Source of the DNA: Climacium dendroides
Taxonomy: Eukaryota > Streptophyta > Bryopsida > Hypnales > Climaciaceae
Assembly: GCA_950106755.1 (NCBI GenBank)
Contig: OX467092.1
Location: 26,178,582 to 26,242,581 of the forward strand
Length of the DNA stretch: 64,000 bases
Direction of reading: 5' to 3'
Part shown: piece by piece, positions 2,891 to 39,084 of the stretch
How the letters are laid out: each line of letters begins with the position of its first letter
Position numbering within the stretch: position 1 is the first letter of the stretch
Notes under the pieces: generated by a model
The model's input: the letters and a program-made list of their open reading frames with translations, nothing else
Databases searched by the model: none
What the model was told of the DNA's origin: nothing
Position numbers and translations under genes: made by a program

Positions 2891-3161
2891 TGTTGAAGGA
2901 AGTAAGTAGCATGCATCAAATTGTTTGAGGAAGTTCTTAGTATGGACTAACCTTAGTTAGGTGTTGTTTGTAGCTAAAGCAATGGGCTATTAGAAAAGGG
3001 AAGCCTTCCTAGTGGACACTTATCCCATATGATTAGTCGGGGCACTTGATAGTAGAGTAGTATAAGAAGGCAACCGTTAGCATGGGCTTGACATCCTTTC
3101 ACATACTTTTTGTGATCCCCCTTCATCAGAATACATTACTTTGGTGTTCTTTCTCTCAATA
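2891..3161 (+). repeat. Copia 5' LTR, diverged family A type
   Basis: It runs from TGTTGAAGGAAGTAAG to TTTCTCTCAATA and follows the 272-bp LTR of the intact A element at 38549-38820 with scattered differences. The adjacent primer site at 3162-3175 has one mismatch to the family consensus GGTTATGGGCCCAC. Together with the leader and gag start that follow, it is the 5' end of a decayed element. Confidence 0.85.
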
Positions 3162-3790
3162 GGTTATAGGCCCACTCATGTGAGTTGCTATTAAAGATCA
3201 GATCTCATTGCAAGGTGTGTTGGAGGAGCACTATTTGAGCTCAGAGCAAGTGAAGTTTGGAATTGTTTGGAGCATTTCTATTCAAGATTTGGGCCCTTTG
3301 GTGAGGTATTTCTTTGTCTTGAGTTGATTTGCATTCATTGAGGGCTGGATGTACTTGTTGCGCACTCAAGAGGGCTAATTTGGTGATTCATAACCTTAGT
3401 AGAGAGATAGAATTTGGTCCTTTCTTTAAAAGAGCTAATTTATGCATTTGGTACATCATTGGAGTGATTTGGACCACTTGAGGTTTTATTCAAGTGTTTT
3501 GGAGTACTTGAGTGTACATTGGAGAGATTTGAACCACTTGGGGTTTAATTTGAGTGATTTAGAGCATTCGAGTATGCATTCAAGAGATTTGGACCGCTTG
3601 GAGTCTGATTGGAGTGGAAGGGATCCACAATGGCCACTAGTGATGGAGATGGGGTGAGGGTCATTGACAAGTTCAATGGAGACAACTTTGGCCTATGGAA
3701 GTTCAAGATGGAGATGATCTTGGCTGAGAAGGATTTGTGGAGATTGTGGAGGGCACTGTAGAGGCTTGTGAATCTAATGTCAAGCTAATT
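3162..3790 (+). pseudogene. Decayed copia leader and gag N-terminus
   Basis: After the primer site comes a leader with repeated phrases such as GGAGTGATTTGGACCACTTG, the same kind of leader as in the intact A element. A gag start codon lies at 3630. The first residues match family A Gag, including the motif DKFNGDNFGLWKFKMEMILA. The frame is broken by a small deletion after codon ~37 and then lost. Sequence similarity to gag ends just before the solo LTR at 3794. This is a dead fragment with no protease, integrase or reverse transcriptase attached. Confidence 0.8.
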
Positions 3791-4226: not shown

Positions 4227-4735
4227 TGTTAAAGGAAGTGAGTAGCATGCATCAAATTGTTTGAGGAAGCTCCTAGTATGGATTAACCTTAGTTAGGTGT
4301 TGTTTGTAGCTAAGGCAATGGGCTATTAGAGAGGGGAAGCCCTCCTAGTAGACACTTATCTCATATGGTTAGTCAGGGCACTTGATAGTAGTGTAGTATA
4401 AGAAGGCAACCCTTAGCATGGGCTTGACATCCTTTCACACACTTCTTTGTGATCCTCCTTCATTGGAATACATTGCCTTGGTGTTCTTTCTTTCATTAGG
4501 TTATGGGTCCACTCATGTGAGTTCTTACTAAAGATCAGATCTCATTGCAAGGTGTGTTGGAGGAGCACCTAGGGTCTGATTTGAGAGTATTGGAGCATGT
4601 GAGTGTGCATTGCAAGGACTTGGACCACATGGGGTCTATTTTTAGAGTACTGGAGCACGTGAGTGTGCATTGGAGAGATTTGGACCACTTGGGGTTTAAT
4701 TTGAGAGTATTAGAGCATGTGAGTGTGCCTTCTTG
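4227..4735 (+). mobile_element. Copia LTR plus truncated leader (diverged A type)
   Basis: The LTR runs 4227-4498 and closely resembles the one at 2891-3161. A primer site variant GGTTATGGGTCCAC follows at 4499-4512. The leader then has three ~60-bp units ending GAGCATGTGAGTGTGC. The leader stops abruptly at about 4735 and abuts minus-strand pol sequence, so this is the 5' tip of a broken element. Confidence 0.8.
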
Positions 4736-5524: not shown

Positions 5525-5960
5525 TGTTGAAGTAAGTGAATAGAATGTTGAGATTAGTGAGTACTAGTGTTAGGTCCACTTATAGGAGCTCTTTGTATGG
5601 GCTCACTACTAGAAAATTTCGTATTTTTGTTGTTTTGGTCGCGTTGATCCGGTCAAAATCTGACAAAAATCTGTTGGTTTCAACAGATTTCTGTCAGATT
5701 TTGACCAGCTCAACGCGACCAAAACAACAGAGAAATGAAATTTTCTAGTAGTGGCTGACCTTTGTTTGGTGTTGTTTGTAGCCAACCAAGGTGCTAATAG
5801 AGAGGGGCAACCCTCTAGTGTTGAGTTATCCCATATGGTTAGTCATGGGACTTGTAGGTAGAGTAGTATAAGAGGTCATCCCCTTGCTTGGGCTCTCTAC
5901 CCCTTCCATTCACTTGTTTGTGTTCTCCCTTCCTTGCAATACAAGTTCTTTGCATTCAAT
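5525..5960 (+). repeat. C-family copia 5' LTR, interrupted by a MITE and by the hAT element
   Basis: It begins TGTTGAAGTAAGTGAATAG inside older pol sequence. A 150-bp MITE sits at 5604-5753. At 5960 the LTR is split by the 15-kb hAT transposon, and its last base is at 21010, directly before the primer site. An uninterrupted minus-strand copy of the same LTR at 28677-28939 has neither insertion and shows the single, unduplicated target sequences for both. Confidence 0.9.
5604..5753. mobile_element. 150-bp CACTA-type MITE, copy 2
   Basis: Same family as 1110-1259, with terminus CACTACTAGAAAATTTCG and a near-complete palindrome. Its 3-bp duplication is GCT (5601-5603 and 5754-5756). The C-family LTR copy at 28677-28939 lacks it and carries GCT only once, which confirms the insertion. 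Confidence 0.95.
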
Positions 5961-6780
5961 CAGGGTTGTCCCCGTCGCGTCCGTCCGTCAGGATGTTCGG
6001 ACGGACGTCAGGATCCATCCCCGGCGTCCGTTAGGATGAAATCCAAATGACAACCGGCGATAGAGGATGATTCAGACTACAGAAATGGATGGACGAGCTT
6101 CGTCGACGGGCGCTCTGGACGGCTGCGATGGACGGTCGGATGAACGGTCGATGTGGACGATCCGGTTGGATGGCCGAGATGGACCATCGACCTGGATGGT
6201 CAATTTGGACCGTCGATCTAGACAGTCTGGCTGAACGGTCGATCTAGACGGTCTAGTGGGACGGTCGATTTGGACGGTCGATCTGGACGGTCTGGTTGGA
6301 CGGTCGATCTGGACGGTCTGGTTGGACGGTCAATCTGGACGGCCGAGATGGACGGTCGATCTAGACGGTCTGGCTGGAAGGTCGATTTGGACGGTCTGGA
6401 TGGATGGTCGATGTGGACGGTCTGGATGGATGGTCGATGTGGACGGTCGAGATGGACGGTTAATCTAGACCGTCAATCTAGACGGTCTCACTACTAGAAA
6501 ATTTCGTATTTCTATTGTTTTGGTCGCGTTGATCCGGTCAAAATCTGACAGAAATCCGTTGGTTTCAACAAATTTCTGTCAGATTTTGACCGGATCAACG
6601 CGACCAAAACAACAAAAAAATGAAATTTTCTAGTAGTGTCTGGTTGGACGGTCCGGCTGGACGGTCGATCTGGACTGTCGATCTAGACGGTCTGGCTGGA
6701 CGGTCGATCTGGACGGTCGAGATGGACGGTTTGGCTGGACGGTCGAGATGGACGGTCGGGCTGGACGGTCGGGATGGACG
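5961..6780. repeat. Left subterminal GACGG repeat block of the hAT
   Basis: Dozens of short units of the type GGACGGTCGATCT and GGACGGTCTGGCT occur in direct and imperfect orientation, far richer in G+C than the flanks. They are interrupted by a MITE at 6489-6638. hAT transposases are known to bind short motifs repeated in the subterminal regions (for Ac, the AAACGG motif), so by analogy these may be transposase binding sites. The overlapping open frames rich in WTVDLDG repeats are by-products of the repeat. Confidence 0.85.
6489..6638. mobile_element. 150-bp CACTA-type MITE, copy 3
   Basis: Same family as the copies at 1110 and 5604. The 3-bp duplication is TCT (6486-6488 and 6639-6641). 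It sits within the hAT subterminal repeats, so this MITE moved after the hAT repeat block had formed. Confidence 0.95.
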
Positions 6781-8321
6781 GGCTTTGAATTTGTTGCACT
6801 TAACCCCTAAACATCTGGACTCTTCTCCCAAAATGACAATTTGGAAAATACCATTATAAAGTATGAATTAGAAGAATATTTTGGAATTGGTATACAAATA
6901 GAAGTTGTAGATTTTGAGTTGTAGATTCCATCCGTAAGGTTAGATCCACCAATGCTATCACCAATCTTTTTCTATAAATTTTGAAAGGAAAAATTCAAAA
7001 TTCCTTCAAAATTCAATTACAAGCAAAATATTATCATTCCTTGATTGAAATTTGTTGGAATGGACTTAAAATGAGGTTGTGTTGACATGGTGATTTTTTG
7101 AAATTTTTATACTCTTTACATCTATGACCTCATTTTTGCAAATCCAATTTTGAACTAGGGTCAATGCAAGTTGACCACTTGACACACTTCCACATTTGTA
7201 ATTTTAGAAAAATGTGTATTCTAAGAACAACAAATCTAACCATTAGATAAGACATGAACTAGTCAACTAGATAAAGTATCACCAAAAATTAGGATGACTT
7301 TGATCCAAGCAAAAACCAAACTGAAATAGGAAGCTGAATTTGTTCATCGTCCAAAAAATGGTTAACCCCTACATGCCTAAGGCACCCAAATCTGGTGTTG
7401 TTCAAACTTTGAAGTTAAAAAGTTGTTCTTGAATTCTAGTTATAGCATCAATAATCTGTTCTTAAAAATATGTGATAGTGATTTTTCTATTCTAAACTTT
7501 GTGTAAGGGTACCTATTGCAATCTTGACTTGTTGTAGTATTGAGAGGTCTTGGAAATGTGCCTCAAAAACATTGGATCTTGGAGGAAAAATCACATTCAA
7601 AATTCATTTAAAATTAAAGAAAATATAATATAGATTTTTAAAAGCCATAAATTAATTGGGGTTATACATATTAGGTTCTTTAACCCCATATTTGTTTGGT
7701 CACCAACTTTTTAAATTGGACTTGTGAAAAGAGGATTGTAAGACTTCACATCATTTTTTTAGTTTTAACACCCTCCTAGGCAAACATTATAATCTTTTAC
7801 TCCATAAGTGATATTGTTTAGGATTCCTTTTCTATGAGGTTTCTAACATGCCTAGTTCGAATTTATACAATTACAATTTTTTGAAAATTGATACACCTAA
7901 TGAAAATGTTGACATGTTGTTCAATTTAGAGCAAATTCTATAAAGCTCAAAGCAAACCTTGGGCATCTAGGATGCTAAGGATAAGGGATTAGAGTTTGTT
8001 ATTGAATTTCTAATTACAGAAGTTGCTAAATTGATTTTACATTGTTTGGCAAGAAATTAAAAAAAATAATCCGTGAGGGTTCTACCATCTAAGTATATAA
8101 GATTCTTCTACACTAATAGGAAAACAGCCAATGGATTAACCCAAAAGACAAAGGCAAAGCAACAATACACGAGGTGAAAAGAAAATGATAAATGTACAAT
8201 GCTTTATAAATGCATCAAAACGTGGTACATTGGTTTAGGCTTTACATTGCTCTGCTTTGTACAACTTTAGAAATTTAATTCTATGCATCTATTTATTTGT
8301 ACACAGCGTCATCTAAACTAT
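6781..8321. other. AT-rich interior of the hAT, no gene seen
   Basis: About 1.5 kb of low-complexity AT-rich DNA with only short open frames. It forms the region downstream of the minus-strand coiled-coil gene. No terminators, RNAs or transposon ends were recognised. Confidence 0.5.
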
Positions 8322-10033
8322 CTATTCTACTTCTTCAATTACAATGCCTCGTGCTATGCTGCTTCTCAAAAATCTTTGCAACTCTTGTCTTGATTGCAAA
8401 GTCGTCAAAAGCTGATGTGCGTCATGATCGTATCTGTTGTGTAAATGGGAGAAAATGGCACTCACAAGTGCAGGCTCATGGAAGGTATTGTCTTCAATGT
8501 AGTTCATTTCTTCCTCAAAATTCAATTTACCTTTGAATTCGACAAGCATGCCTTGAGAGTTAAACATTATGCCTTGTGGATGTGGTGCACGCACAAAAAT
8601 GGAGAGGTCCGGGTCCCAATGTCCACCAACAATTTGACCAAAATATATTGGAATTCCAAGTCTGGAGAACTATTCCAATCGATGCTTGCATTCTCGAGCT
8701 TCACCAGCAAATCATCAGTGAACATTTCTTCCACTCGAGGCCACGAGGTCAAGCCAAAATAACGTTCGCCGCCATCATTGAATTCCGCAGCCACTCTCTT
8801 CACTTCACGCTGCATCTGCTCAACCTCGCTTAGTGCTAAGCTGCATGTCAACTTCATGTTGCACATTTGAAGCAGCATGCGTTCCTTCTTCGGGTTTTGG
8901 ACCAACCGCATATTTTGAGCACTTAATGCGGTCATGGTCTGCTCCAAGCCAGCTTGAGCTGTAGTAAGTACCACCACATCTGCCTCGGCTTTGTTAGCGC
9001 GAAGTTCCAAAGCCCGCATAGCGTTTGTCAATTCTTCAACGTGGGCTTTAGTACTTCCAACCTCTGCTTCAGCTCGCTCCGCACGTACACGTATAATATC
9101 CAACGTGGCACCTCCAACACTTGGAAACAAGGACCGTGACCGCACCCTAAACTCGTTTGCATTGCTGGGGCCTGGTCTGTCTTCGTCTGCACCGTATGTA
9201 GCACGTTCGACCACCACATCAAGTGGTGGAATTTCGTCCGTACTCAACCGCCTTTCACGTGCTACGAGGTCGGCCTCGCGTGCGATGAGTCTTGCATTCT
9301 CATCCATAAGGGCCTTCACCCTAGCCCTTTGCCCTTCCAACTCTGCAGCATGTTGTCGTAATGTGGCTTCCTTTTCTGCTTGCAGCGTTTGGACTAATTG
9401 TCGCAAGCGAAGTACTTCATCACCTTCACCTTCCACTCCACCAATCGCATCTTCATTGGGTAGGTCTTCTTCAGTGCCCATGCCACCCTCTACCTCCATC
9501 CCGGGTTGCTCCACTTGCTCTTCCGGGTTTTCTTGCACATTGGGTACGTTGTCCAATGGCACGGCAGGGTTTGGTGGAATGCTGCGAGGTCTATTTGGTG
9601 ATTGACCATGATGCATCTTACCGAGGAAGGTTCTCCAATCCACATCCTTCCCAAGAAAAACTTCTGCATATGCCATTTGGCACAACGAAAGGGTCCCATC
9701 TTTTCTGGATCTCGAACTCCAAATCGCCAATGCCACTTCAATCAATCTCTTCTTGAAGTGCGGATGTCGGCACTGGTCGAAATTTACAACCCCGCATTTC
9801 ACATTTACCTCGTACCGGTCAGGTGCCCAATGGCGGTTGATGTGGGCCCAATCTACGAACTTTCGACACGTCACTCTTGTCCACGGTGAATCTTCATTCA
9901 TCCACCCCTCGTTTGTCATAATCTCCGGGGCATTGAGTGTGCTTCAATCCAAGGTTGCCCTATTCCCCCTCTTCTTTTTACTTGGGGGCTCACCTCCATG
10001 TCCTAAACCTCGTGCTGCATCCTCTCCGTCCAT
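8322..10033 (-). pseudogene. hAT cargo gene: coiled-coil protein of unknown function
   Basis: From a start at 10033 the frame reads a short N-terminus with a basic KKKRGNR stretch, then hits an in-frame TGA at 9944-9946. It is then open from ATG 9919 for 450 codons. The N-terminal ~110 residues are Trp- and Cys-rich (for example WAHINRHWAPDRYEV) and are not a family I can name. An acidic linker follows, then two heptad-like coiled-coil stretches at about residues 167-225 and 275-345 of the 450-codon frame. Near 8650 the frame shifts and continues as PDLSIFVRAPHPQGIMF to a stop at 8322. The gene therefore carries at least one nonsense codon and one frameshift, unless unrecognised introns remove them. 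A TATA-like box at ~10246-10252 and a GACGG block lie upstream. Confidence 0.65.
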
Positions 10034-10241
10034 TCTGGATACCTGTCCCAAATTTCCTGTACCTGTAGTTTGTTTGCGGATACACTGACAATTTGCTTTG
10101 CCTTCTGTTGCGTGAAGGCAACTGAAAAGTGGCAAAACAAATGCCAAATGTATAACACTTCCTCTTGAATTACAATGCAAAGCTTTCTTAAGCCAGGACA
10201 AAGCAACTCAAAAGAGGAAGCGATTTCAAATGAGCCAACAA

Positions 10242-10254
10242 AACATACTTATAC
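10242..10254 (-). promoter_or_regulatory. TATA-like box of the coiled-coil cargo gene
   Basis: On the minus strand the sequence GGTATAAGTATG lies about 210 bp before the likely start codon at 10033. It lies directly downstream of the GACGG-rich block at 10300-10560. The same arrangement is seen at the other two hAT genes. There is no transcript evidence. Confidence 0.4.
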
Positions 10255-10299
10255 CTCCGAATTACCGACCCAATTACGCCCGATAATTAGTACATAATC

Positions 10300-10560
10300 A
10301 TGACGTCCAGCTCAAATCCAGACCGTCCAGGGACGTGGGACGACCCTGGAATGGACGGTCAATCCGTCCACGAAGGTTTGGGACAGGTTTGGAAAGCCGT
10401 CCAGAGGTTCGGGTTAGGTTTGGAAAGTCGTGCAAAGGCTCAGGGCACCGAAAAGAGGATTGGAAAATCATTATGGCGCCGTCTGCGAGTTCCCTCGACG
10501 GCTTGTCCGTTGATCTGGACGGCCTGCTCGTCCCCTCGACGGCTTGTCCTTTGTGGGTTC
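10300..10560. repeat. Internal GACGG-rich block upstream of the coiled-coil gene
   Basis: A GC-rich island in AT-rich surroundings carries many GACGG/CCGTC motifs, including CCTCGACGGCTTGTCC twice. It resembles the subterminal blocks at both ends of the hAT and sits just upstream of the minus-strand coiled-coil gene. Confidence 0.75.
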
Positions 10561-10627
10561 ATGATTGAAATTTTCTATTGCTACGACCAAATGATGTGAA
10601 AAATTCATTCAATTGAAGCAATTTTGG

Positions 10628-10768
10628 ATCTAATGATGAGTGTGTAGTATAGCAAGCGCCAACTACTATCATCATCATACTACTAAAATCATAATGGCCT
10701 CTGGGATATTACAAATGCTACCATTAATACTAGGGGCTTGTGCTTGCTATGCTACGCATTCATTGTAT
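10628..10768. repeat. Small inverted repeat, MITE-like
   Basis: The left arm has GTGTAGTATAGCAAGCGCCA and the right arm has the imperfect complement (GCTTGCTATGCTACGCATTC). A related left arm recurs at about 11338-11400. No convincing target duplication was found, so classification as a MITE is tentative. Confidence 0.45.
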
Positions 10769-11439
10769 CACATATTGATGAAATTTTGATATATTTGAAT
10801 ACAATGTATGATAACGATTTCAATAAGTCTTTAAAATAATAATTTCCAATATATTGTAAAATTACTTCTAATCATGCATATATAAATATCATTGCTTCTC
10901 TTGGCTTTACACTTCTTTGCACTCTATGATTTTGTGTTTTTGTAAGCCTTGAACTTTTATGATTTTAAAATTCTATTGCTACTTCCAAATGATTTGAGAA
11001 ATTTATTCAATTGAAGCGATTTTGGATTTCACAACAATTAAATTGTTCACGAAGTTTTGAAATTTACAAGTTCTTCTTTTCAATTCACCCAGTTTGGGGG
11101 GTGCCATTGTTTGTAACAACAAAGTCAATCTTGGAATGCATTATAATACATGTAGATCTTTTACATATTGCCCATTGCATATATTTTATTCATCATTCAA
11201 TAAATTTCTATTGTACATTTCAATATATGCTTATTTATAAACAAAATTATATAAAGATTTTAGTAGTAAATGGAAGGTTTATTGAAATTTGTGTTCTTTA
11301 TTTTATCTAATACATAAAAATTCAATAAAATTCAAATGATGAATGTGTAGCATAGCAAGCGCCAACCACTACCATACTACTAAAATCACAAGGTCCTTTG
11401 TAATACCATAATTTTACAGAGTGTGATATTACAGAGGCC

Positions 11440-11552
11440 CAATACCTTTATAATATCACATTCTAACACTGTGTTATAATACAAAATTGCAACAGCCACT
11501 CCACTTCCGTAACATCACACAGTGTTAAAATGTGATATTATAAAGGTACAGG
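11440..11552. repeat. Inverted repeat within the hAT interior
   Basis: The arm TACCTTTATAATATCACATT at ~11443 pairs with AATGTGATATTATAAAGGTA at ~11529-11548. The pairing extends inward through the CACTGTGTTA-type sequence. It could be a small terminal-inverted-repeat element; no clear target duplication was seen. Confidence 0.5.
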
Positions 11553-12044
11553 GAATATTATGGATGTTAAGGTATTCTTGGCTTCACACTTCATTCAACT
11601 TGCATGATTCTATGATTTTGAGAATTAACTAGCGGTTATATGAGGATGTCAATATTTCCATTTAAAGATTATATATTCTTTAATTATCTACATTCTATTC
11701 TGTAAACCACCATATTGGTTTACTTTTAATGTAATAGGAAATAAGTAAAATATAGATATGAGTTTTAGATTTAAAAGTGTTAGTATCCTAAATTAAACTA
11801 AAACCATTAGTTAGAAGACTTTTAGTATATAGGACAAGAAACTAGATCAAAATCCAAAGGACAAATGTAATATATTACGGTTTTAGGCGAAACATTTGTT
11901 AGAAAACTATATGAAATATTGGAATCCATTCATCTATTTTTGGATTTGGTCTTACTTCAATTTGAAATTATTTGCTAAAATCACATAAACTTGAGCAACA
12001 TCAAATAGTCTTAAAAGGAAAAATAAGAAAGAGCATTTAAGGTA

Positions 12045-12112
12045 TAGGTTTAGGATATAGGGTGTAGGGTTTAGGGTATAGGGTACAAAGTATAGCGTAT
12101 AGGGTTTAGGTA
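12045..12112 (+). repeat. Degenerate telomere-like TTTAGGG array
   Basis: GGGTTTAGGGTATAGGGT-type units repeat over about 65 bp with many variants. They match the plant telomere unit TTTAGGG in degenerate form. Such interstitial patches are common in plant intergenic DNA. Confidence 0.7.
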
Positions 12113-12244
12113 ACCCGGGTGGGTGGGAGGGACATCCCTAGAAGGGCCTTTCCTATAAATAACAAACAAATCATAATCTAAAAAGTATTTCAAAGATCAT
12201 GGATAGTACAAAGTAGAATGGAGGTCACTCACATCCAACTATAA

Positions 12245-12440
12245 AAGTATCAAATCCATCAAGTCAATAAAATCTTTAGCAAAGATGTATTGTACATAGG
12301 ATTGATTCCATCAAGTCAATAAAATCTTTAGTAAAGATATATTGTACATAGGATCAATCAAGTCAACGTAATAAAATCCTTTACAAAGAAATTTTTATGT
12401 ACATCAAGTCAATAAAATCTTTTGTAAAGAAATATTAAAA
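12245..12440 (+). repeat. Imperfect tandem repeat, ~53-bp unit
   Basis: Units containing CATCAAGTCAATAAAATCTT followed by AAAGATATATTGTACATAGG occur at about 12257 and 12310, with shortened, diverged copies to ~12440. Confidence 0.75.
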
Positions 12441-13684
12441 AAGGATCAAATCAAGAACATCTTTAGATCCTTTCTAAGTAAAAATACCAATACAACATGT
12501 CAATAAATTATAGACAAATCATGTAGTGCTCTAAATCCAAAAACACATCATGATTTAGAACCCAAAGAGAATAGAAATTTGTTGTCAAGGTCTTGGAAAA
12601 AAGTTGCCATGTAGATTTTTACCAAAGAGGCTGTGAACCTCACCTGTCCCCATGACAAACCAAACATCGGAATGTTAGTAAATCGTAGACAAGGTGTCTT
12701 CAGTTCACAGCAGCGTGTTATAGCAGTCACAAAAGCAAAAATCAAACATGAAAACTCAAATCACAAGAAACTTAATTAACAAATTCTAGTCTAGCATCCT
12801 ATGCAGCATAGAAGACCTGTGTAGACGCCATCTCTAGTCCTCACACCAACTACTCGCAGTCCTTTCCAAAGCCAGCCAACAACAGCAAGTTGTGAGGGCT
12901 TGTTGAATTGGTCCAGACCTTTATACCCAAGTAGAGGTATAGGTAAGCCATGGCTAGAGTAGTCCATGCCTAGGTCCTCCACGAAAACCCCAAGGAAATT
13001 TACCTTGAGTTTCTAGAAACGACGGCCTAGCTTCCAAGAAATTATAGCTAGGGACCTAGGTATACAGGTCAAATATCTTCTAGAAGGCTCCCAAAATTAG
13101 TGGAAATCAACCGTTTGTGAATCACAAACGGTGACCCAGACCTCTTCTAGAAACTAATAGCCACCACTTGTTGAACTGGCATGGAACTTCCCATCATGTG
13201 TCAGCCCATCACAAGGTGTAAACACCAAGACTAGAAAGGAGACTAATGATCTCAACTTTGCTACATGTCAACCTACATAGAAGATTCTGATTTTAATCCC
13301 TATGTAAGGTTAAAACTTAACCAAGAAAAAATTATTATCTAGGTGAAGTATGACAATATTTACCCTCTGGCAAAAAAATCCCTTTATTGTAAATCAATCT
13401 TATTGGTGTTAGGAAAAAATCCTATAGCTATAAATTTCAAAAATTCATGGAAAGTAGACATACGGGAGGATGGGAGGGGCTACAATGAACCCATAAATCA
13501 TATGGTAAAAATCTGAAATTTTCACCAAGGATTATAAACAACAAAAATGGTGCAAAATTGAAAACCATTTAACTTGTAGTGGAATTTTTATAAGGGCCAA
13601 CCCCTCATAACCATCCCTTAATCAAAGGAGTATAATTACTAATTCTTTTGATAGAACTAGGCTCTATAGGTACAAACTATGGCA

Positions 13685-13756
13685 TAATATAGGGTTTAGG
13701 GTTTAGGGTTTAGGGTATAGGGTATAGATTATTAGAGTTTAGGGTTTAGGGTTTAC
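13685..13756 (+). repeat. Telomere-like TTTAGGG array
   Basis: Several exact consecutive TTTAGGG units followed by variants and a second short run. This supports a plant source for the window. A further reverse-strand pair of units lies near 14563. Confidence 0.8.
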
Positions 13757-14800
13757 TTGGAAACATAAGTCATAGTTGAAATTACCATATAGATGATCTT
13801 GGTTTTTTTAATTGGGATTATATGTTGAAAGCTCAATTAAATTGTAGAGTTTGAATCGAAGCAAAAATGGATTGTTGAATTAAATTCATATTCTCATAAT
13901 GCATATTGAAGACCAAAAATCAGAGTATAAGTTTATCTTTCAGCATAGATAGGGGAAGTCCCCTTTTTTTGGTGTATTGGATCAAATACAAGGAGTAAAA
14001 ATGTTTGTAATGAATCAATGATTCTATATTATACATTTTTTTTTCGGAGTTTTTTAGATATCTTTTTTAATGATCGATTTTAAAATTAAGTTTACAATAT
14101 TAGAGTTTAGCCATTTTGTCTTTGATTCTATATATTTGATATGGACTTAGTAAATTAGTGAATGTTTGTATGTTTGAATTGAGTACATGCCGGTTGAATA
14201 TTCAAGAAATACTAAATTGTAAAATTGTTAGGTGCACTTACATGTAGGGAAGCTTGGAATCAAAATACAATAATCCCAAAGGTAAAATTACTCTATATGG
14301 AATTCTAATATTCATTGCATTTAAATTTGATCCGTATAAATTATTTAAGTTGCGAGGGATGCCTTGATCGTTGTAATACAAACATTGGCCACGACTTTCT
14401 TATTATGGGTGCAAATGAAATGATGCAATTTTTTATGTGAACATCAAAAATATTCTAGGACTTAAATTAAGATGTTTTGAATATGCCCTTTTGTAATTTT
14501 TGGGGTTGTTTTTTCCTTTATTTATGTGCAACTAAATAAAATTCCATTTTATTCGAGCCTAAACCCTAAACCCTTCATCTGCATTTGAATGTCATTATTG
14601 GTATTTATTTGTACATCCATAGGAACAAACATGAACATTTAATTGGCACTCCAAAACTTCCCGCCACCATAGACAATGTAGTATTTCAAACATGGACACC
14701 TGTCCTGACAAGTCCTAGGGTGGAAAACAAGATAATTGAAAAATTCCCCAAACAAGGATTCGCAATTAATTCCATGCTTCCAGCACTTTGGGCGACAGCT

Positions 14801-14965
14801 TGTTTCGACGGTCTTTTCATCCCTTGGATGCCCTGGACGCCTTGGACGCCCATGGATGGGGGACGGAGTCCGTCCTCTTGACGGCATGATTGTCGATCTG
14901 GACGACGCGACCGTCCACTCGACGGCATGCCCGTCCATCTCGACGGTCATGCCGTCGAGAGGAAA
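14801..14965. repeat. Internal GACGG-rich block upstream of the kinase-like gene
   Basis: A dense cluster of CGACGG, GGACG and CCGTC motifs, several within palindromic CCGTC/GACGG pairs, ends a few bases before the TATA box at 14970. Composition and motifs match the blocks at 5961-6780, 10300-10560 and 20710-20990. Confidence 0.8.
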
Positions 14966-14969
14966 TGGG

Positions 14970-14979
14970 TATATAAAAG
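14970..14979 (+). promoter_or_regulatory. TATA box of the kinase-like cargo gene
   Basis: TATATAAAAG is a canonical plant TATA box, about 185 bp before the start codon at 15163. It directly follows the GACGG-rich block. No open frame separates them. Confidence 0.7.
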
Positions 14980-15162
14980 GGGTTTGGATTCATTTCTGCC
15001 ACAGTCTCTCTTGCTCTGACGGTGCTCACTTGTCTTGGATTGGTTGCAGTCCTTGCTTGGGAGCGCGGGTGCTTGTGAGAGGCTGGTTTGAGGAATAAGG
15101 GGGCGGTTTTTACTTTGTGGAACCCGAATTCCTAATTCCTCTGGATTATCACTACTATCACA

Positions 15163-16806
15163 ATGGCTGGTCGTGATTTCTCGAAGAGGAAGGTTGATGC
15201 ATGGTTTTCAGGAGTTGGAGATGGAACGAGTTTGGACTCGCCTGTGGAATCAGAAAGCCAGATTTCAGAGGCTGTAGCTGCAGAAGGAGCCATAGCAATT
15301 GTGGGTGCGGGAGAGTCTTCGAAGTCAAAGAAAAAACAACGGAAAAGGTACAAGGCCACAAATCTAGAGAAGTGGCCAAGCAAGGTTGCAACTCGCAAAT
15401 TGCATGAAGTGGCGTTGGGTTTTTTTGAGCAGTATTCGATTCCGCAGTTGAACACAACATATGTGTCGCGCGGATTACAGGGGGTGGATGCCATCAAACA
15501 AAAGTTCCACCACATGTTTTGGACAACAATGAGCGAGGATGAGTGGTTGGAAGACTGTACAAAGGAATCCTTCAATCATTGGCTGGAGTCACAAGTGCAA
15601 ACGTGCATCTTCAACCTTGCCCAAGTTGCGGAAAAAATCAAAGGCTTTCAAAAGAGTGTAGTTCCCAAACAACAAGCATTGAATTTGTTGCACAAGAAGG
15701 TGTATTGGTGGCATGAAGCAATGCGGGGACTATCTTCAAACAACATCCGTTCTGCTCCGTGGTTTCAACGAAGTCAAAACTTGGCCTTTGGTCAACAAGC
15801 TGCGGGTGGAGTGGTTTTTCTTGAGAGAGGAGTTGTGGTGGTTCCGTTGTCTGGCCATAACAAACAAGGGGGGCACGGGAGGGTGCGCAAGGTTTGTCTT
15901 CAGAATTCGAACCATATTCCCGAGAATATGGAATTAGCTGGGAAGTCGGCCGTGCGCATTGATGACTTGAAGAAGTCAAGGGAGAAATTGTCCATTGAGG
16001 CATTGGTTTGTCCATGCGATCATTCAGGGGTCATCAAATTCTTTGCCATAAATGACATGACCATATAGTGTTATTCTCAATGGTGGAATGGAGGTACTCT
16101 GGGCGCCATGTTTACCCTTGATGAGAAGACCCGAGATCCAGACGAAATTGGGGAGGTGGCTTACCATGCAACTCCACAAACAATGCAAGCCATGAAACGA
16201 CTTATGGCATACAGACGCAAGCGCACCGAACTTGCGTGGGCGTTGCTCTGCATTGTGGATGCAGTGCAACAATGTTCAGTACTGCACAACGACATCACAC
16301 CGGAGAACATCATGCTTCACTTTCCGAATAACGATGGAAGAACCGTGTGGATTGGTCTATGTGATTGGGGAATGGGTAGCCGCATCAGTGAAGAAACCCC
16401 TTCTTTTTACCAATTCAGTTGTGCAAATAAGTTGCAGGCAACTCGCAAGCAACATTGGTGGGTGGCTCCGGAGTTGATGTACATGGTTGGAGAGACAGGA
16501 ACTTCAACATCTCCTAGTCGCATGGGTAAGCCACCATCTGTTAGTATACACACGGATGGATACTCCATAGGGAGATTGGCTATGAAGGTATGGAAAAAGG
16601 ATCGCGGAAATACAGAGATGATTTCTGACCATACGACATTTGGTACATTTCAAGCGACACTGGGTGAATTGTGCAAGGTGGAGCCACTACAACGACGCTT
16701 AGTGACATTTGCCGTGCAACGTCTAAGTGGTGCTCCAACGTTTTGGACACCACCCGTGGATTGCTACCGCGAGGCCCGGAAAGAACAAGACCTTCAAGAT
16801 GAATAG
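15163..16806 (+). pseudogene. hAT cargo gene: protein kinase-like protein with one in-frame TAG
   Basis: The frame spans 547 codons from ATG 15163 and is interrupted only by TAG at codon 302 (16066-16068), inside the kinase-like domain near the hinge. The frame continues unshifted as YSQWWNGGTLGAMF. The first ~220 residues have a basic stretch (KSKKKQRKR) and match no family I can name. Kinase hallmarks follow: a glycine-rich loop GGHGRVRKV at ~236, catalytic loop HNDITPENIM at ~375 (HRD read as HND, and the usual Lys replaced by Thr), DWG in place of DFG at ~401, and APE at ~435. The catalytic Asp and Asn are kept. It lies convergent to the transposase gene. It could be an atypical or regulatory kinase, or a pseudokinase. 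Captured-gene origin is inferred. Confidence 0.75.
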
Positions 16807-17389
16807 GCGTGCAATGAGGATTAGATGATAGTATATTATCATATAGTTGCAAAATTAATGTTTTCTTAGCAAATGTGGTTACTATAGTATCGGCTTGAGG
16901 ACATCCATAGCAATGTAGCACACTTTGTGCCCTCAATCCATTTTGTACTCGTTTTTATATATATATAAATGTATTTTATCTAAACATTGAGTGTATCTTT
17001 TTTTTATCACACCTCAAACAAGTAAACAACTACAACAAACACCTTGAAGTCAAATTTGACTATCAACCCAAATTTATCTTTTTATTCAAAATCAGTAGAA
17101 TATTTTAATATTTTTGGCTAGTATAAGAATCCATTTTCTATTTATGCCTTTTTTAATTTAATGAAAAAATCTATTTATTTTGATTTTAGAAAAGCTAAAC
17201 ATGAAAATCAAATCATATTAGTTATAATATGTATCAAAATAAATTGAAACTCTTACCATAAATGAAGGATAAAATGAAAGGAACAAAAGTACTACTTCAT
17301 ATTAATGCCGATTTCAATATGTAAGGTATTGAGCTTCAAAATCCATTGCATTTGAAAACATGAAGATCCTATTGTCTTTTGAAAAACAT
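16807..17389. other. AT-rich spacer between convergent genes
   Basis: This is the shared downstream region of the kinase-like gene (plus) and the transposase gene (minus). It contains AATAAA-like and T-rich stretches that would serve as plant 3' ends. No gene is seen. Confidence 0.5.
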
Positions 17390-20300
17390 TCAACGTCTTC
17401 CATGCCTAAGAACGCGCCTAGAAATATTGGCATTTGCTTCTGCTACAATTGGTTCATTACCACTACTTTCTACTCGTGGACCTTGTTGAGGCATTGATCC
17501 TAGATAATCACTATCTCCTGGAACCTCACCATCTTCGCCTATACTAGCACCGATGGACTCGCCATCATCACTGGATGTTGCACTACCACTTTCGCTAGAG
17601 GCATTCGAATTTCGATTTCGTTGTGGTTGAATTATAGAAGACAACGTTTGAAGAGGCCATTGGCCCGTTGCGTCCATAATGCCATCTATACTAGGCCCTC
17701 CTATGTGAACTTCTCTTGAAAATGGTTGGAATGCCGCTTCTTCTCTCGTTAGTCTTCTACGTGTTCTAGGACTCACATGTTGACTAGTAGTACCTTCATG
17801 TCGTGGATGCTTCCCTCGATTATTGGCACGTGTAGGTGGGTGCAATGAAGTCGGGTTTGTAGTCGTACGCTGGGACACCATACTAGCCAATCGTGTACCT
17901 ATCGTTGAAGTGGGTCCATGTAGACGAACTCCGGAATTAGATGGCTTGGCTGAACTTTGGATTTGTTGATTCTCTAGTATTGGTGTTTGACGTTGTAGTG
18001 CAACATCCCTTTGACTTGGAGGGGGCATATCTAATTCTCCACCATGAGGGGGCCCTTCTTTGTGGGTGGTCCTCGTAGGCAATGATTGTGGTACTACTAC
18101 GTCTTGTTCACATCCTCTTTCCATGTCAACACTATCTCTTTCCATTGGGGCATCAACTTGTACATCGATAGGATCTGGATTTAGTAGTCTCGGTGCCACA
18201 ATGTCTTCATTCGTATTTCCCCCGCTTGGCCCAGCATTCCACCCTTGTGGCATTTGTGGTGGACTTCCATCATATCCCTCGTGGTCATTGTCGTTATTAT
18301 CCCCCTCTTCAAAGTCAAATACAGATGCATCAATTAGAGGACGCACTCCTCTCGCCCTCTGAAATCCATGGAATGGTGGGTCATCGCCATCATTGGAACT
18401 ATCATTTGAATTGTCATCATTGGGGTTAGAGCGAACCGAACCACGGTCTAGACCATCCGATTCATCGGTCATGGAATCTTCTAACATCATATTCTCGATG
18501 TACTACCTTGTCGGATTTGCTGCAGCCCTTTCTCTAAGAGTTTTGGAATTGGTGTAAATGTAAACCAATTTCTGAGCACACTCTGATGTCAGTCTATTGC
18601 GTGATTTGTTGTGGACAAACAAATACATGCTCCAATTGCGTTCACACGACGATGTAGAGCACACTTGGGCGAGGATCTTTTTTGCAATTGGTGCAAGTGT
18701 ACGAGCACCGGCTCCGAGAAGGTCCCACCATTCGTGAGTTGCAAATTTAAAGTGTTTACATCGGGAAGTCCACCAAAAATGCCCCGACAATCTCGAAATG
18801 CTTGGTACTCAGACAAAGCTGAAGCAAATGCTTGATCTGGAACAGCCAATTTGCGCAATACTCTCAATATGCCTTCTCTTGCCTCGTCATCATCCATTAG
18901 CAAGACTTCGTCAAGTAAAAAAGGATTCAATAGAGCCCCACCATAATGCAAATCTGTCCTTAACATGTCCCAACGCTTGTAGAAATCATTGATGGTAGGA
19001 ATTGCATACCGTGGTTCCAAAGAAAATGGTGGATCCCGTAGAGATAAAACATGCTTTTCCACCTTTTTCATCACAAGCCATGCCTTGTCTAAGCATGGGT
19101 GCTTGCCATCAAACTCTCTAAGAGCAACCAATACGGGCTCCACTATGTGCACAAAGTTTAAACATCTCCTCCAAAATTCATCCGTTCGTACATACCGTCG
19201 CACATCGTTGGCTTTTCTTTTCTTTTCTTCTGATGTCAATCTCTCTGTGTACTCATTCCATTGCGGATTGTGGACTGTTGATTCTATCGCTACCTTCACA
19301 TGTACCAAACGCTCAATCATAAGGAACATGGTTGCAAAGCGTGTTTCAACGGGATTCTTCAAAATGAGATTAGGAGAATGTCGTCGAAAAATTGCAAGTG
19401 GCATGTGATGTGTGCGAATGTATTTCACAATTGACTTGGCTTTCTTGACTATACTTTTTATCCAATCTTGTTTGCCTCAATCTTCAAGTAGAAGGTCAAG
19501 TGCATGTGCTGAACACCCTTGAAAATATAAGTGTGGAAATCGACAAAGTAACAAAGCATTAGCAGCCAACATGTTCGCTGCATTGTCTGTACAAACTTGT
19601 ACCACATTTTGCGCCCCTACCCTGTCAATATAATCACCCATGCAATTAGCCACATAAGTAGCATCTTTGCGTTCGCCTGTTGTGTCTATGGATCCAAGAA
19701 ATACCTCTCCACTTGTACATGCCAACATGACATTCATCAATGGTCGATGGTTGACATTGTCCCATCCATCAGAGCATATTGTAACGTCGTACTTGTGGAT
19801 TGGTGCCTTTGTCTTCTCCGCTACCATTGCTGCCACTTCGTCGTTTGTAGATTTCATGAGGTTTGTACGAAGTGCATGGTACGCTGGAGGTTTGTAGCCA
19901 ACTCTCGATTCTGATGTTGATTTCATGGCATCCAAAAAAGTTGGATGCCTCGCTACATTGAAAGGTATATTGGCTTCATAGAAGAACTTAGCCCACTTTT
20001 TGTCTAGTACTTGCTTGTTTGATGTATTCATTCCTTCTTGCACAGACAATTGCCTCATTGATCGACTATGGGCCAAACTCGGGTTGGGTGCGTCTGATGA
20101 TCGTACTTGAGAGCTTTGTCCCCTAGTGTTTTCTCCTCCATCGTTTCCTAAGATTGAGGCATCAGGTTCTTGCTCACCACGTACAACACTCGGAAGTACC
20201 ATTGATGGAGATGTCACTTCCACATCCTGTCCACTCCTGTCCGAAGTGCTTGCAGGTATATCCCCTCTGCAATTAAAAAACATTAACTTCACGGCTGTAC

Positions 20301-20472
20301 TAACTTTAGTGCAGGCTCTCACTTCAGGGAGCTTGTCCATTCGTCGGTACCCCAAATGGAAAAGCAACCAATCTTTTCGATAGCTTAGCAAAGCTTCGCA
20401 AAACTTGCAAGCAACTTTTCCATCCACTCGTAGTGTGTACCAAGATTCCCAATGTGATCTTCCTCCACCCAT
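17390..20472 (-). pseudogene. hAT transposase with three lesions
   Basis: The start is ATG 20472. The N-terminus has a BED-type zinc-finger pattern (CKFC with downstream HLGY and C, residues ~20-55). The catalytic region has the expected aspartates in TICSDGWDN (~233) and VCTDNAANM (~290). An in-frame TGA at 19477-19479 follows CSAHALDLLLED, then the frame continues. A frameshift near 18745 leads into the hAT C-terminal dimerisation region (THEWWDLLGAGA, then STSSCERNWS and RNRL). An in-frame TAG at 18503-18505 separates this from a 366-codon acidic, Ser/Asn-rich tail ending at 17390. The enzyme would cut and paste elements with CAGGG ends and make 8-bp duplications, matching this element. 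The tail could instead be a separate gene. As read, the protein is broken. Confidence 0.88.
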
Positions 20473-20683
20473 TGCTCTTATCTATTCTTTCCTACTTGCC
20501 CCTGCATAAGAAAGAAGATTAGTATTCTGTATGAAATGCGATATAGAAGCAATACTTGTTGCTCTCACAACAAGTGCCACCACAACACATTCTTCTTGGA
20601 TTTTGCTTTACCGCAATGGTTGTACTCCAACCAAGTCATGAAAGCCAAAATCAGCAAGGAAAAGTAATCTTGAATAGGCGTAA

Positions 20684-20698
20684 GTCCTTAATATACAC
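20684..20698 (-). promoter_or_regulatory. TATA-like box of the transposase gene
   Basis: On the minus strand GTGTATATTAAGG lies about 215 bp before the transposase start codon and directly downstream of the right GACGG block. It mirrors the layout at the kinase-like gene. Inferred from position and sequence only. Confidence 0.4.
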
Positions 20699-20709
20699 CT
20701 TCAGGGCGT

Positions 20710-21001
20710 TCCTAAAACCCTAAAATCCAGCTAGACGGACTGACGGCTGATGTGTCGACGAGTGGACCCTAAGCCCAACGGAAACGGCCTGCCGTCCGGG
20801 GGACGACCTCACATCCTAGGGACGGCTTACTGTCCGGGAGGCCATCCGGGAGTCCGTCCACAGCTGGACAGACTTCATCCATGCTGAAACGGTCACGTCA
20901 GTATTGGTGACGGATCCTGACGACGTCACGACACGTCAAGACGGATGCGTCATGACATTCGGACGTGAAAAGCCCACGTCACGTCTGGATAGACAACCCT
21001 G
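20710..21001. repeat. Right subterminal GACGG repeat block and terminus of the hAT
   Basis: GC-rich DNA carries GACGGCT, CCGTCC and ACGTCA motifs up to the terminal repeat. It serves both as the right end of the transposon and as the region upstream of the transposase gene. Individual units are more diverged than in the left block. Confidence 0.8.
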
Positions 21002-21009
21002 CATTCAAT

Positions 21010-28676: not shown

Positions 28677-28939
28677 TATTGAATGCAAAGAACTTATATT
28701 GCAAGGAAGGGAGAACACAAACAAGTGAATGGAAGGGCTGGAGAGCCGAAGCAAGGGGCTGACCTCTTATACTACTCTACCTACAAATCCCAGGACTAAC
28801 CATATGGGATAACTCAACACTAGAGGGCTGACCCTCTCTACTAGCACCTTGGTTGGCTACAAACAACACCAAACAAAGGTCAGCCCATACAAAGAGCTCC
28901 TACAAGTGGACCTAACACTAGTACTCACTAACTTCAACA
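28677..28939 (-). repeat. C-family LTR (minus), empty-site copy
   Basis: A 263-bp LTR of the same family as the one split by the hAT element. It carries CATTCAAT and the MITE target GCT only once each. It lacks about 21 bp near its start relative to the copy at 5525. Its flanks belong to different B fragments in opposite orientation and show no matching 5-mers, so it marks a rearrangement point rather than a clean solo LTR. Confidence 0.88.
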
Positions 28940-38548: not shown

Positions 38549-38820
38549 TGTTGAAGAAAGTGAGTAGATTGGCATAGAATGTTTGTGGGAGCTCTTAGTA
38601 TGGGCTGACCTTAGTTGTGTGTTGTTTGTAGCCAAAGCAATGGGCTATTAGAGAGGGGCAGCCCTCCTAGAGGACCTTTGTCCCATATGGTTAGTCATGG
38701 CACTTAGTAGAAGAGTGGTATAAGAGGGCAGCCCCTAGCATGGGCTTGACACCCCTTTCTCACACATGTTTGTGTTCCCCTTCATTGGAATATATTGGCT
38801 TGGTTTTCTTTCTCTCAATA
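38549..38820 (+). repeat. Family A 5' LTR
   Basis: It runs TGTTGAAGAAAGTGAG to TTTCTCTCAATA. LTR ends are TG...TA with inner CAATA, shared by all copia families here. It is expected to hold the element promoter; GTATAAGAGG near 38718 is the best TATA-like match. Confidence 0.95.
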
Positions 38821-38834
38821 GGTTATGGGCCCAC
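38821..38834 (+). promoter_or_regulatory. Primer binding site, internal initiator tRNA-Met type
   Basis: GGTTATGGGCCCAC is the reverse complement of GTGGGCCCATAACC, the anticodon stem-loop of plant initiator tRNA-Met. It does not match a tRNA 3' end (no TGG at the LTR junction). Drosophila copia is primed by such a tRNA half-molecule. Equivalent sites occur at 3162, 4499, 21011, 27585, 30222, 38121, 44405 and 55652. Confidence 0.85.
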
Positions 38835-39084
38835 TCATGTGAGTTGCTATTGGAGGTGAGATCTCATTGGAAGGTGTGTTGGTGGAGCACTATTGGAGCT
38901 TGGAGCAAGTGGAGTTTGGGGTCGTTTGGAGCATTTCTCTTCACCATTTTGGTGAGGTATTTTCTTGTTTTTGAGTCCATTTGTGCTACTTGAGGGTTGA
39001 TTGTACTTGTTGAGCACTCAAGAGGGTTGATTTGGTGTTTCATAGCCTTATTGGGAGGTAGGGTTTGGCCCTTTCTCCAAAGGG

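What the first reader, a model, noticed from the sequence alone, without database searches (positions are those of the whole stretch)
5961..21001. A 15-kb hAT transposon carrying a kinase-like and a coiled-coil gene
Seen directly: matching CAGGGTTGTC termini, perfect 8-bp duplication CATTCAAT, a subterminal inverted GTCAGGATCC pair, and a hAT transposase gene inside. A paralogous LTR at 28677-28939 has the target once, which proves the boundaries. Known: autonomous hAT elements are usually 2.5-5 kb and carry only a transposase. Inferred: this is a large cargo-bearing hAT lineage, or an Ac-like element that captured two genes with their promoters. This is the best candidate for an undescribed system in the window.
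Basis: partly seen in the sequence, partly recalled or inferred. Interest (0 to 1): 0.9.

Follow-up and report, generated by a model that had tools for sequence, protein, structure and literature searches.

The report
Three-gene giant hAT transposon family
A land-plant genome holds dozens of copies of an unusually large cut-and-paste transposon which, in every copy read whole, carries a protein-kinase gene and a RING-finger gene beside its transposase, so these look like working parts of the element and not accidental passengers.

Summary
Window 5961-21001 is a 15,041-bp hAT element: 10-bp CAGGGTTGTC ends, perfect 8-bp target duplication, DUF659/hAT-dimerisation transposase. It is no one-off capture. 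In the source genome (412.6 Mb, land plant) 38 of 40 scored 5' ends and 38 of 40 scored 3' ends have the kinase gene at the expected place and strand. Ten further copies fetched whole all carry the same three genes in the same order; 10 of the 11 have perfect 8-bp duplications. A divergent (~80% identical) 16.7-kb copy has the same ends, a 7/8-matching duplication and the same genes, and changes between that lineage and the recent family are depleted of amino-acid changes in all three genes. The 'coiled-coil' gene is a coiled-coil RING-H2 gene whose RING is deleted here; all three window genes are broken. New: GACGG/CCGTC arrays sit at both ends and upstream of each gene, and are rare elsewhere in the element. 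I read it as a hAT lineage with two conserved accessory genes, probably regulatory; their role is inferred. Fungal hATs with an inactivated captured gene are known; my open-literature searches listed no hAT with two maintained accessory genes.

The parts
5961..21001 (.). whole hAT element, 15,041 bp
   Evidence: ends and duplication; ten further whole copies of 13.5-14.9 kb
5953..5960 (.). left 8-bp target duplication CATTCAAT
21002..21009 (.). right 8-bp target duplication CATTCAAT
5961..5970 (+). 5' terminal inverted repeat CAGGGTTGTC
   Evidence: other copies
20992..21001 (-). 3' terminal inverted repeat
   Evidence: other copies
6105..6781 (.). 5' subterminal tandem array of about 13 bp (TGGACGGTCGATC-like), split by a 150-bp foldback MITE at 6489-6638
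   Evidence: the repeat finder; TRF; MITE
8322..10033 (-). remnant of the coiled-coil RING-H2 gene: open piece 8567-9919, C-terminal piece 8322-8594 in another frame, about 482 bp with the RING deleted at about 8646, and an in-frame stop upstream of 9919
10250..10550 (-). GACGG/CCGTC cluster upstream of the RING gene
14870..14979 (+). kinase promoter: about 4 units of a 20-21 bp array (CCGTCCATCTCGACGGCATGA), then TATATAAAAG at 14970-14979
   Evidence: TATA region alignable in the divergent copy
15163..16806 (+). protein-kinase gene, one frame without introns, in-frame TAG at codon 302 (16066-16068)
17390..20472 (-). hAT transposase gene (about 1027 codons in one frame in sister copies), here with an in-frame TGA at 19477-19479, a frameshift near 18.74 kb and an in-frame TAG at 18503-18505
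20473..20991 (-). transposase promoter and 3' subterminal region with a GACGG/CCGTC cluster

Best explanation
This is a dead copy of a long-lived ~14-kb hAT transposon family with three genes of its own: a DUF659-type hAT transposase, a protein-kinase-like protein and a coiled-coil RING-H2 protein. Shown: fixed gene order between fixed ends in 12 copies read whole, genome-wide linkage of ends, kinase and RING genes, 8-bp duplications, and constraint on all three genes between two lineages. Inferred from anatomy and from what is known of hATs: the transposase cuts and pastes the element by the usual hAT route. Inferred: the GACGG/CCGTC arrays at both ends and in all three promoters are binding sites of one element-encoded DNA-binding protein, most simply the transposase, so that transposition and expression of the three genes are coupled; kinase and RING protein (a probable E3 ubiquitin ligase) then act on host or element proteins to keep the element expressed or to tune transposition, for instance by removing a silencing factor. 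I give the three-gene-family statement about 0.95 and a regulatory or anti-silencing role of the accessory genes about 0.35.
For: Own genome: 38 of 40 scored 5' ends (112 candidates) have a kinase 7.7-11.8 kb downstream on the same strand (chance about 0.07), and 38 of 40 scored 3' ends (130 candidates) have one about 4.2-7.0 kb upstream. 54 of 57 RING loci have a kinase head-to-head 3.2-7.2 kb away. Ten of ten further whole copies plus the window carry RING(-), kinase(+), transposase(-); 10 of these 11 have perfect, mutually different 8-bp duplications. A ~80%-identical copy has the same ends, a 7/8-matching duplication and the same genes. Two-lineage comparison: NG86 dN/dS kinase 0.32, RING 0.32, transposase 0.44 against medians 0.59, 0.61, 0.79 within the recent burst; with transitions and transversions counted apart, all six counts lie below neutral, p 5e-12 to 0.006. 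Uninterrupted complete kinase (547 aa) and RING (734 aa) ORFs exist in sister copies. Kinase motifs AGK, alpha-C Glu, DWG and APE are invariant in the 9 proteins aligned; the C3H2C3 ligands are invariant in 3 RING proteins. Array density per kb over 11 copies: 5' end 37, kinase promoter 36, RING promoter 18, transposase promoter 16, rest 0.49; 28 of 31 motifs of the divergent copy lie in the same four places.
Against: No expression, biochemical or movement data. Kinase and RING roles are read from domains: RING scores are below or at the Pfam cut-off (20.0, 25.9 and 27.3 against 27.3 bits), and one of nine aligned kinases lacks the catalytic-loop Asp (P0004). No whole-length transposase ORF was seen: the longest of 11 copies is 918 of about 1027 codons. 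Variation inside the recent burst looks neutral, so constraint rests on one comparison with one decayed copy, with alignment across its frameshifts. Structure predictions failed (mean pLDDT 48.9 and 40.2). The genome-wide transposase search did not complete, so transposase linkage rests on the 12 whole copies. c05 lacks a matching duplication. Linkage in other species is untested.
Confidence: 0.85

Rival explanations
1. Passenger model: an ancestral hAT captured two host genes once; they hitchhike and have no role for the element.
For: Within the recent burst all three genes decay as if neutral: singleton (N+stop)/S 2.19, 2.27, 3.05 against about 2.0 expected for transitions. A fungal hAT amplifies a captured histone gene whose copies are inactivated (PMC6710886).
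Against: Both genes are present and show reduced amino-acid change in a second lineage at ~20% divergence, and near-full-length kinase relatives of 57-83% identity occur in public sequence.
Confidence: 0.15
2. Nested elements: several separate transposons inserted into one another, giving an apparent three-gene unit.
For: End-like GACGG arrays occur inside the element, and a one-mismatch terminus-like site lies at 10339-10348.
Against: Same order and orientation in 11 whole copies at independent target sites and in the divergent copy.
Confidence: 0.02
3. Segmental duplication of a host gene cluster that happens to contain a hAT.
For: Copies of about 95% identity over about 14 kb.
Against: Ten of 11 copies are bounded by the terminal repeats and a different, perfectly duplicated 8-bp target each.
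Confidence: 0.01
4. The accessory genes serve the host (for example in signalling or defence) and the element is kept as a vehicle.
For: Kinases and RING proteins are common in plant signalling (general knowledge); both genes show constraint.
Against: In-frame stops in 10 of 11 kinase, 10 of 11 RING and 8 of 11 transposase genes fit a burst followed by decay; linkage to hAT ends is nearly complete among scored ends.
Confidence: 0.05

Closest known systems
Canonical plant hAT elements (Ac/Ds type; recalled)
   Same: 8-bp target duplication, short CAGGG-type ends, subterminal repeats, transposase with hAT C-terminal dimerisation domain
   Different: about three times longer, with two further conserved genes and repeat arrays in all promoters
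Histone-H3-carrying hAT of Pseudocercospora fijiensis (PMC6710886; abstract and section 6 read)
   Same: large (about 9.5 kb) multicopy hAT with DUF659, 8-bp duplications and a non-transposase gene
   Different: there the passenger is a captured host gene, inactivated in the copies; here two gene families, for which I found no host parent, are constrained between two lineages
ToxhAT, renamed ToxTA, of wheat-pathogenic fungi (PMC12506042, passages read)
   Same: 14 kb, inverted ends, carries cargo
   Different: its authors now place it in Tc1/mariner (TA duplication, 74-bp ends); single copy
VANDAL elements of Arabidopsis with VANC anti-silencing proteins (PMC10398659 abstract; PMC5735166 passages)
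   Same: plant DNA transposon with accessory genes and short, fast-changing tandem arrays in non-coding regions near its genes
   Different: another transposon superfamily (MULE, recalled); VANC is not described as kinase or RING protein in what I read; anti-silencing is shown there and only proposed here

Membership tests
hAT superfamily | 8-bp target-site duplication | tested here: met
   perfect in 10 of 11 whole copies, all targets different; 7 of 8 in the divergent copy
hAT superfamily | short terminal inverted repeats of YARNG type (consensus recalled) | tested here: met
   CAGGGTTGTC; 0-2 changes per end in the 11 copies, the limit of the scan being 2
hAT superfamily | transposase with hAT C-terminal dimerisation domain | tested here: met
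   PF05699 35.5 bits and PF04937 129.1 bits in a 918-aa sister ORF; weak match, E 0.02-0.04, to the C-terminus of Hermes transposase in PDB
hAT superfamily | catalytic DDE residues and BED-type zinc finger | not tested
   catalytic triad not mapped; no BED family listed at E 0.1 in Pfam
   13.5-16.7 kb, three genes
Eukaryotic protein kinase | VAIK-type Lys, alpha-C Glu, catalytic-loop Asp, DFG-type Asp, APE | tested here: met
   K261, E279, D401 and APE invariant in 9 aligned proteins (P0008, frameshifted, left out); HND Asp in 8 of 9; Pkinase just above cut-off in the window, below it in P0010
RING-H2 E3 ligase | C3H2C3 zinc ligands | tested here: inconclusive
   ligand pattern present in 3 of 3 proteins, Pfam score at or below cut-off; absent from the window copy
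VANDAL/VANC-like anti-silencing system | element-encoded protein that binds the arrays and removes DNA methylation | not testable with these tools
   arrays shown; no binding or methylation data

The most novel reading that the evidence does not exclude
A hAT lineage has evolved a built-in control module: a kinase and a RING ubiquitin ligase, each expressed from a promoter made of motif arrays akin to those at the transposon ends, so that one element-encoded DNA-binding protein couples transposition to a phosphorylation/ubiquitination programme that disables host silencing.
Probability: 0.25. Interest if true: 0.88.

Novelty: new variant of a known kind. Interest (0 to 1): 0.72.

Why it matters
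hAT elements are generally taken to be compact one-gene transposons, and cargo on them to be accidental (general knowledge). A hAT family of dozens of loci that keeps a kinase and a RING gene in two diverged lineages would show that cut-and-paste transposons of this superfamily can carry an accessory gene set, as VANDAL elements do for anti-silencing. The arrays shared by promoters and ends make the idea directly testable by binding and reporter assays, and give two transposon-borne protein families for study.

Tried and rejected
Rejected: nested elements and segmental duplication; one-off capture. With the short peptide patterns that the tool chose, no relatives of the kinase or RING proteins were found in viral contigs or bacterial/archaeal genomes. 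AlphaFold models of kinase and RING protein were too poor to use, so no fold search was run. A PDB sequence search gave only FUS3 for the kinase, E 0.0024 and 0.0062. Within-family dN/dS at first looked like constraint (0.59-0.61), but the split by mutation type shows decay close to neutral, so that argument was dropped and replaced by the two-lineage comparison. On checking, the 918-aa transposase ORF proved not to be whole length.
Full report
What is there. Window 5961-21001 starts with CAGGGTTGTC and ends with its complement; these are the only two exact occurrences in 64 kb. CATTCAAT is repeated directly outside. Host flanks joined with the target once match uninterrupted relatives of the same LTR sequence across the junction at 38596-38970, 2938-3288 and 4273-4523. 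Inside are a transposase with DUF659 and Dimer_Tnp_hAT, a kinase gene and a coiled-coil gene.

State of the window copy. The transposase is broken by an in-frame TGA, a frameshift and an in-frame TAG. The kinase frame 15163-16806 has one in-frame TAG at codon 302. The two relatives found for the coiled-coil gene, P0011 (70%) and P0012 (40%), continue into a RING finger. Against three sister copies (c02, c03, c10) the window lacks about 482 bp there, which leaves the C-terminus in another frame; an in-frame stop lies upstream. The window copy also has about 1.58 kb at 12111-13689 that those three copies lack, and a 150-bp MITE at 6489-6638. So this copy is a fossil.

The family. The source genome has 412.6 Mb in 123 contigs. 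The 5'-end search scored 40 of 112 candidates and the 3'-end search 40 of 130; all 40 matched in each case. The kinase search scored 79 of 701 candidates and gave 80 rows, merged to 76 loci. Of 40 5' ends, 38 have a kinase 7.7-11.8 kb downstream on the same strand; of 40 3' ends, 38 have one about 4.2-7.0 kb upstream, two of these 3' ends sharing one kinase. For three of the four misses the lists show a kinase 22-31 kb away on the same strand (my reading of the coordinates); insertions inside the element would explain that. Of 76 kinase loci, 19 show both scored ends, 19 only the 5', 18 only the 3' and 20 neither; as only 40 ends of each kind were scored, 'neither' is not evidence of absence. 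There are 19 distinct 5'/3' pairs, window included, at 13.5-15.1 kb (20 rows, one 5' end pairing with two 3' ends). The RING search scored 57 of 1324 candidates and gave 58 rows, 57 loci: 54 have a kinase head-to-head at 3.2-7.2 kb, two at 20.7 and 26.7 kb, one none.

Whole copies. In ten of ten, and in the window, the order is RING(-), kinase(+), transposase(-). Ten of these 11 have a perfect 8-bp duplication, all of different sequence; c05 does not. Aligned parts are about 95% identical. An uninterrupted complete kinase frame (547 aa) and RING frame (734 aa) each occur in one of the 11 copies. No whole transposase frame was seen: the longest is 918 of about 1027 codons and holds both hAT domains. 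In-frame stops occur in 10 of 11 kinase, 10 of 11 RING and 8 of 11 transposase genes (transposase counted over the 918 codons).

An older lineage. A weaker kinase hit (64-75% protein identity) led to a 16,697-bp copy with ends CAGGGTTGTT and CAAGGTTGTC, flanks ATTTTAAT and ATTTCAAT (7 of 8), and the same three genes in the same order; gene-bearing segments are about 74-83% identical in DNA and much of the intergenic DNA does not align. The two lineages therefore shared the three-gene plan before they diverged. It is one copy.

Selection. Inside the recent burst, changes are mostly C-to-T or G-to-A and close to neutral: singleton (N+stop)/S is 2.19 kinase, 2.27 RING, 3.05 transposase against about 2.0 expected for transitions. 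Median NG86 dN/dS there is 0.59, 0.61 and 0.79, which I take as the practical neutral baseline. Between the lineages it is 0.32 (0.25-0.43), 0.32 (0.26-0.39) and 0.44 (0.36-0.55). With transitions and transversions apart, observed over expected N/S is 0.53/0.51 kinase, 0.64/0.33 RING and 0.72/0.54 transposase, each below neutral (p 5e-12 to 0.006), and N/S is lower than in the burst (Fisher p 0.027, 0.005, 0.0003). The old copy's own decay (9, 7 and 15 stops) pulls towards neutrality, so the test is conservative; sites are treated as independent, and alignment across frameshifts is a weakness. The cargo appears constrained about as much as the transposase.

The proteins. Nine kinase relatives were found, 34-95% identical (the 7996 best candidates were scored), and two RING relatives (7998 scored). 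The nearest relatives of the transposase N-terminal piece are 82, 81, 69 and 69% identical over 72-100% of it; the next with full coverage are 41-43%, some partial ones 50-60%. The spread resembles that of the kinases, as expected if they travel together, but the contigs could not be fetched, so linkage in other species is untested. Kinase motifs are kept in the nine proteins aligned, with one Asn for the catalytic-loop Asp in P0004. The RING pattern is C-x2-C-x14-C-x-H-x2-H-x2-C-x10-C-x2-C.

Promoter arrays. GACGG/CCGTC counts per kb over the 11 copies are 37 at the 5' end, 18 upstream of RING, 36 upstream of kinase, 16 upstream of transposase (also the 3' end) and 0.49 elsewhere; shuffled promoter sequences give means of 1.1-1.2 motifs where means of 10-18 are seen. 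The units differ: 13 bp at the 5' end, 20 bp (CCGTCCTCTCGACGGCATGA) upstream of the kinase just before a TATA box, 20/41 bp upstream of RING, 19 bp at the 3' end; in the four copies run through TRF the kinase array has about 4 to 16 units, and the RING and 3' arrays were not called as tandem in every copy. In the divergent copy 28 of 31 motifs lie in the same four places. This resembles VANDAL arrays, which lie in non-coding regions, form tandem repeats and vary between copies (PMC5735166 passages; PMC10398659 abstract). That likeness is a lead, not a test.

Known or not. ToxhAT, the 14-kb element named as a cargo hAT, is now placed in Tc1/mariner by its authors (PMC12506042 passages). A 9.5-kb fungal hAT carries captured histone H3, inactivated in the copies (PMC6710886 abstract and section 6). 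The open-licence paper searches (29, 70 and 83 returned no paper) listed nothing on a hAT with kinase and RING genes, judged by titles and abstract starts; subscription papers and preprints were not searched. I therefore call it a new variant of a known kind.

Host. A family search for the LEAFY SAM domain (PF01698) gave 5 matches in this genome and none in 14 control genomes; one locus also holds the start of the LEAFY DNA-binding domain (motif recalled). That marks a land plant.

Noticed in passing
window 6489-6638, 5604-5753, 1110-1259: 150-bp foldback MITE with CACTACTAGAAA ends; one copy sits inside the hAT's 5' array with a TCT duplication, another lies about 200 bp outside the element; one more in sister copy c07.
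   Followed up: partly
window 12111-13689: About 1.58 kb present in the window copy and absent from the three sister copies compared (c02, c03, c10), near TTTAGGGTATAGGG-type repeats; nature unknown.
   Followed up: partly
window 11431-11560: 130-bp imperfect foldback present in all 11 whole copies, between RING and kinase genes; possibly an old MITE.
   Followed up: partly
P0010 (protein database): A 34%-identical kinase relative with a long low-complexity N-terminus; suggests that the kinase family is wider than this transposon.
   Followed up: no
window 22398-63924: Many copia-like ORFs (named from recall, no family search run), some of 800-1300 aa; the hAT sits in an LTR related to LTRs elsewhere in the window.
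   Followed up: no
G000:C41:27073470-27089550 (L027, L028): Copy c10 has a duplicated 3' end of about 0.9 kb with two 3' terminal repeats.
   Followed up: no
G000:C2:4652716-4654551: One RING-family locus without a kinase within 30 kb in head-to-head orientation; could be a remnant or a gene outside the transposon.
   Followed up: no
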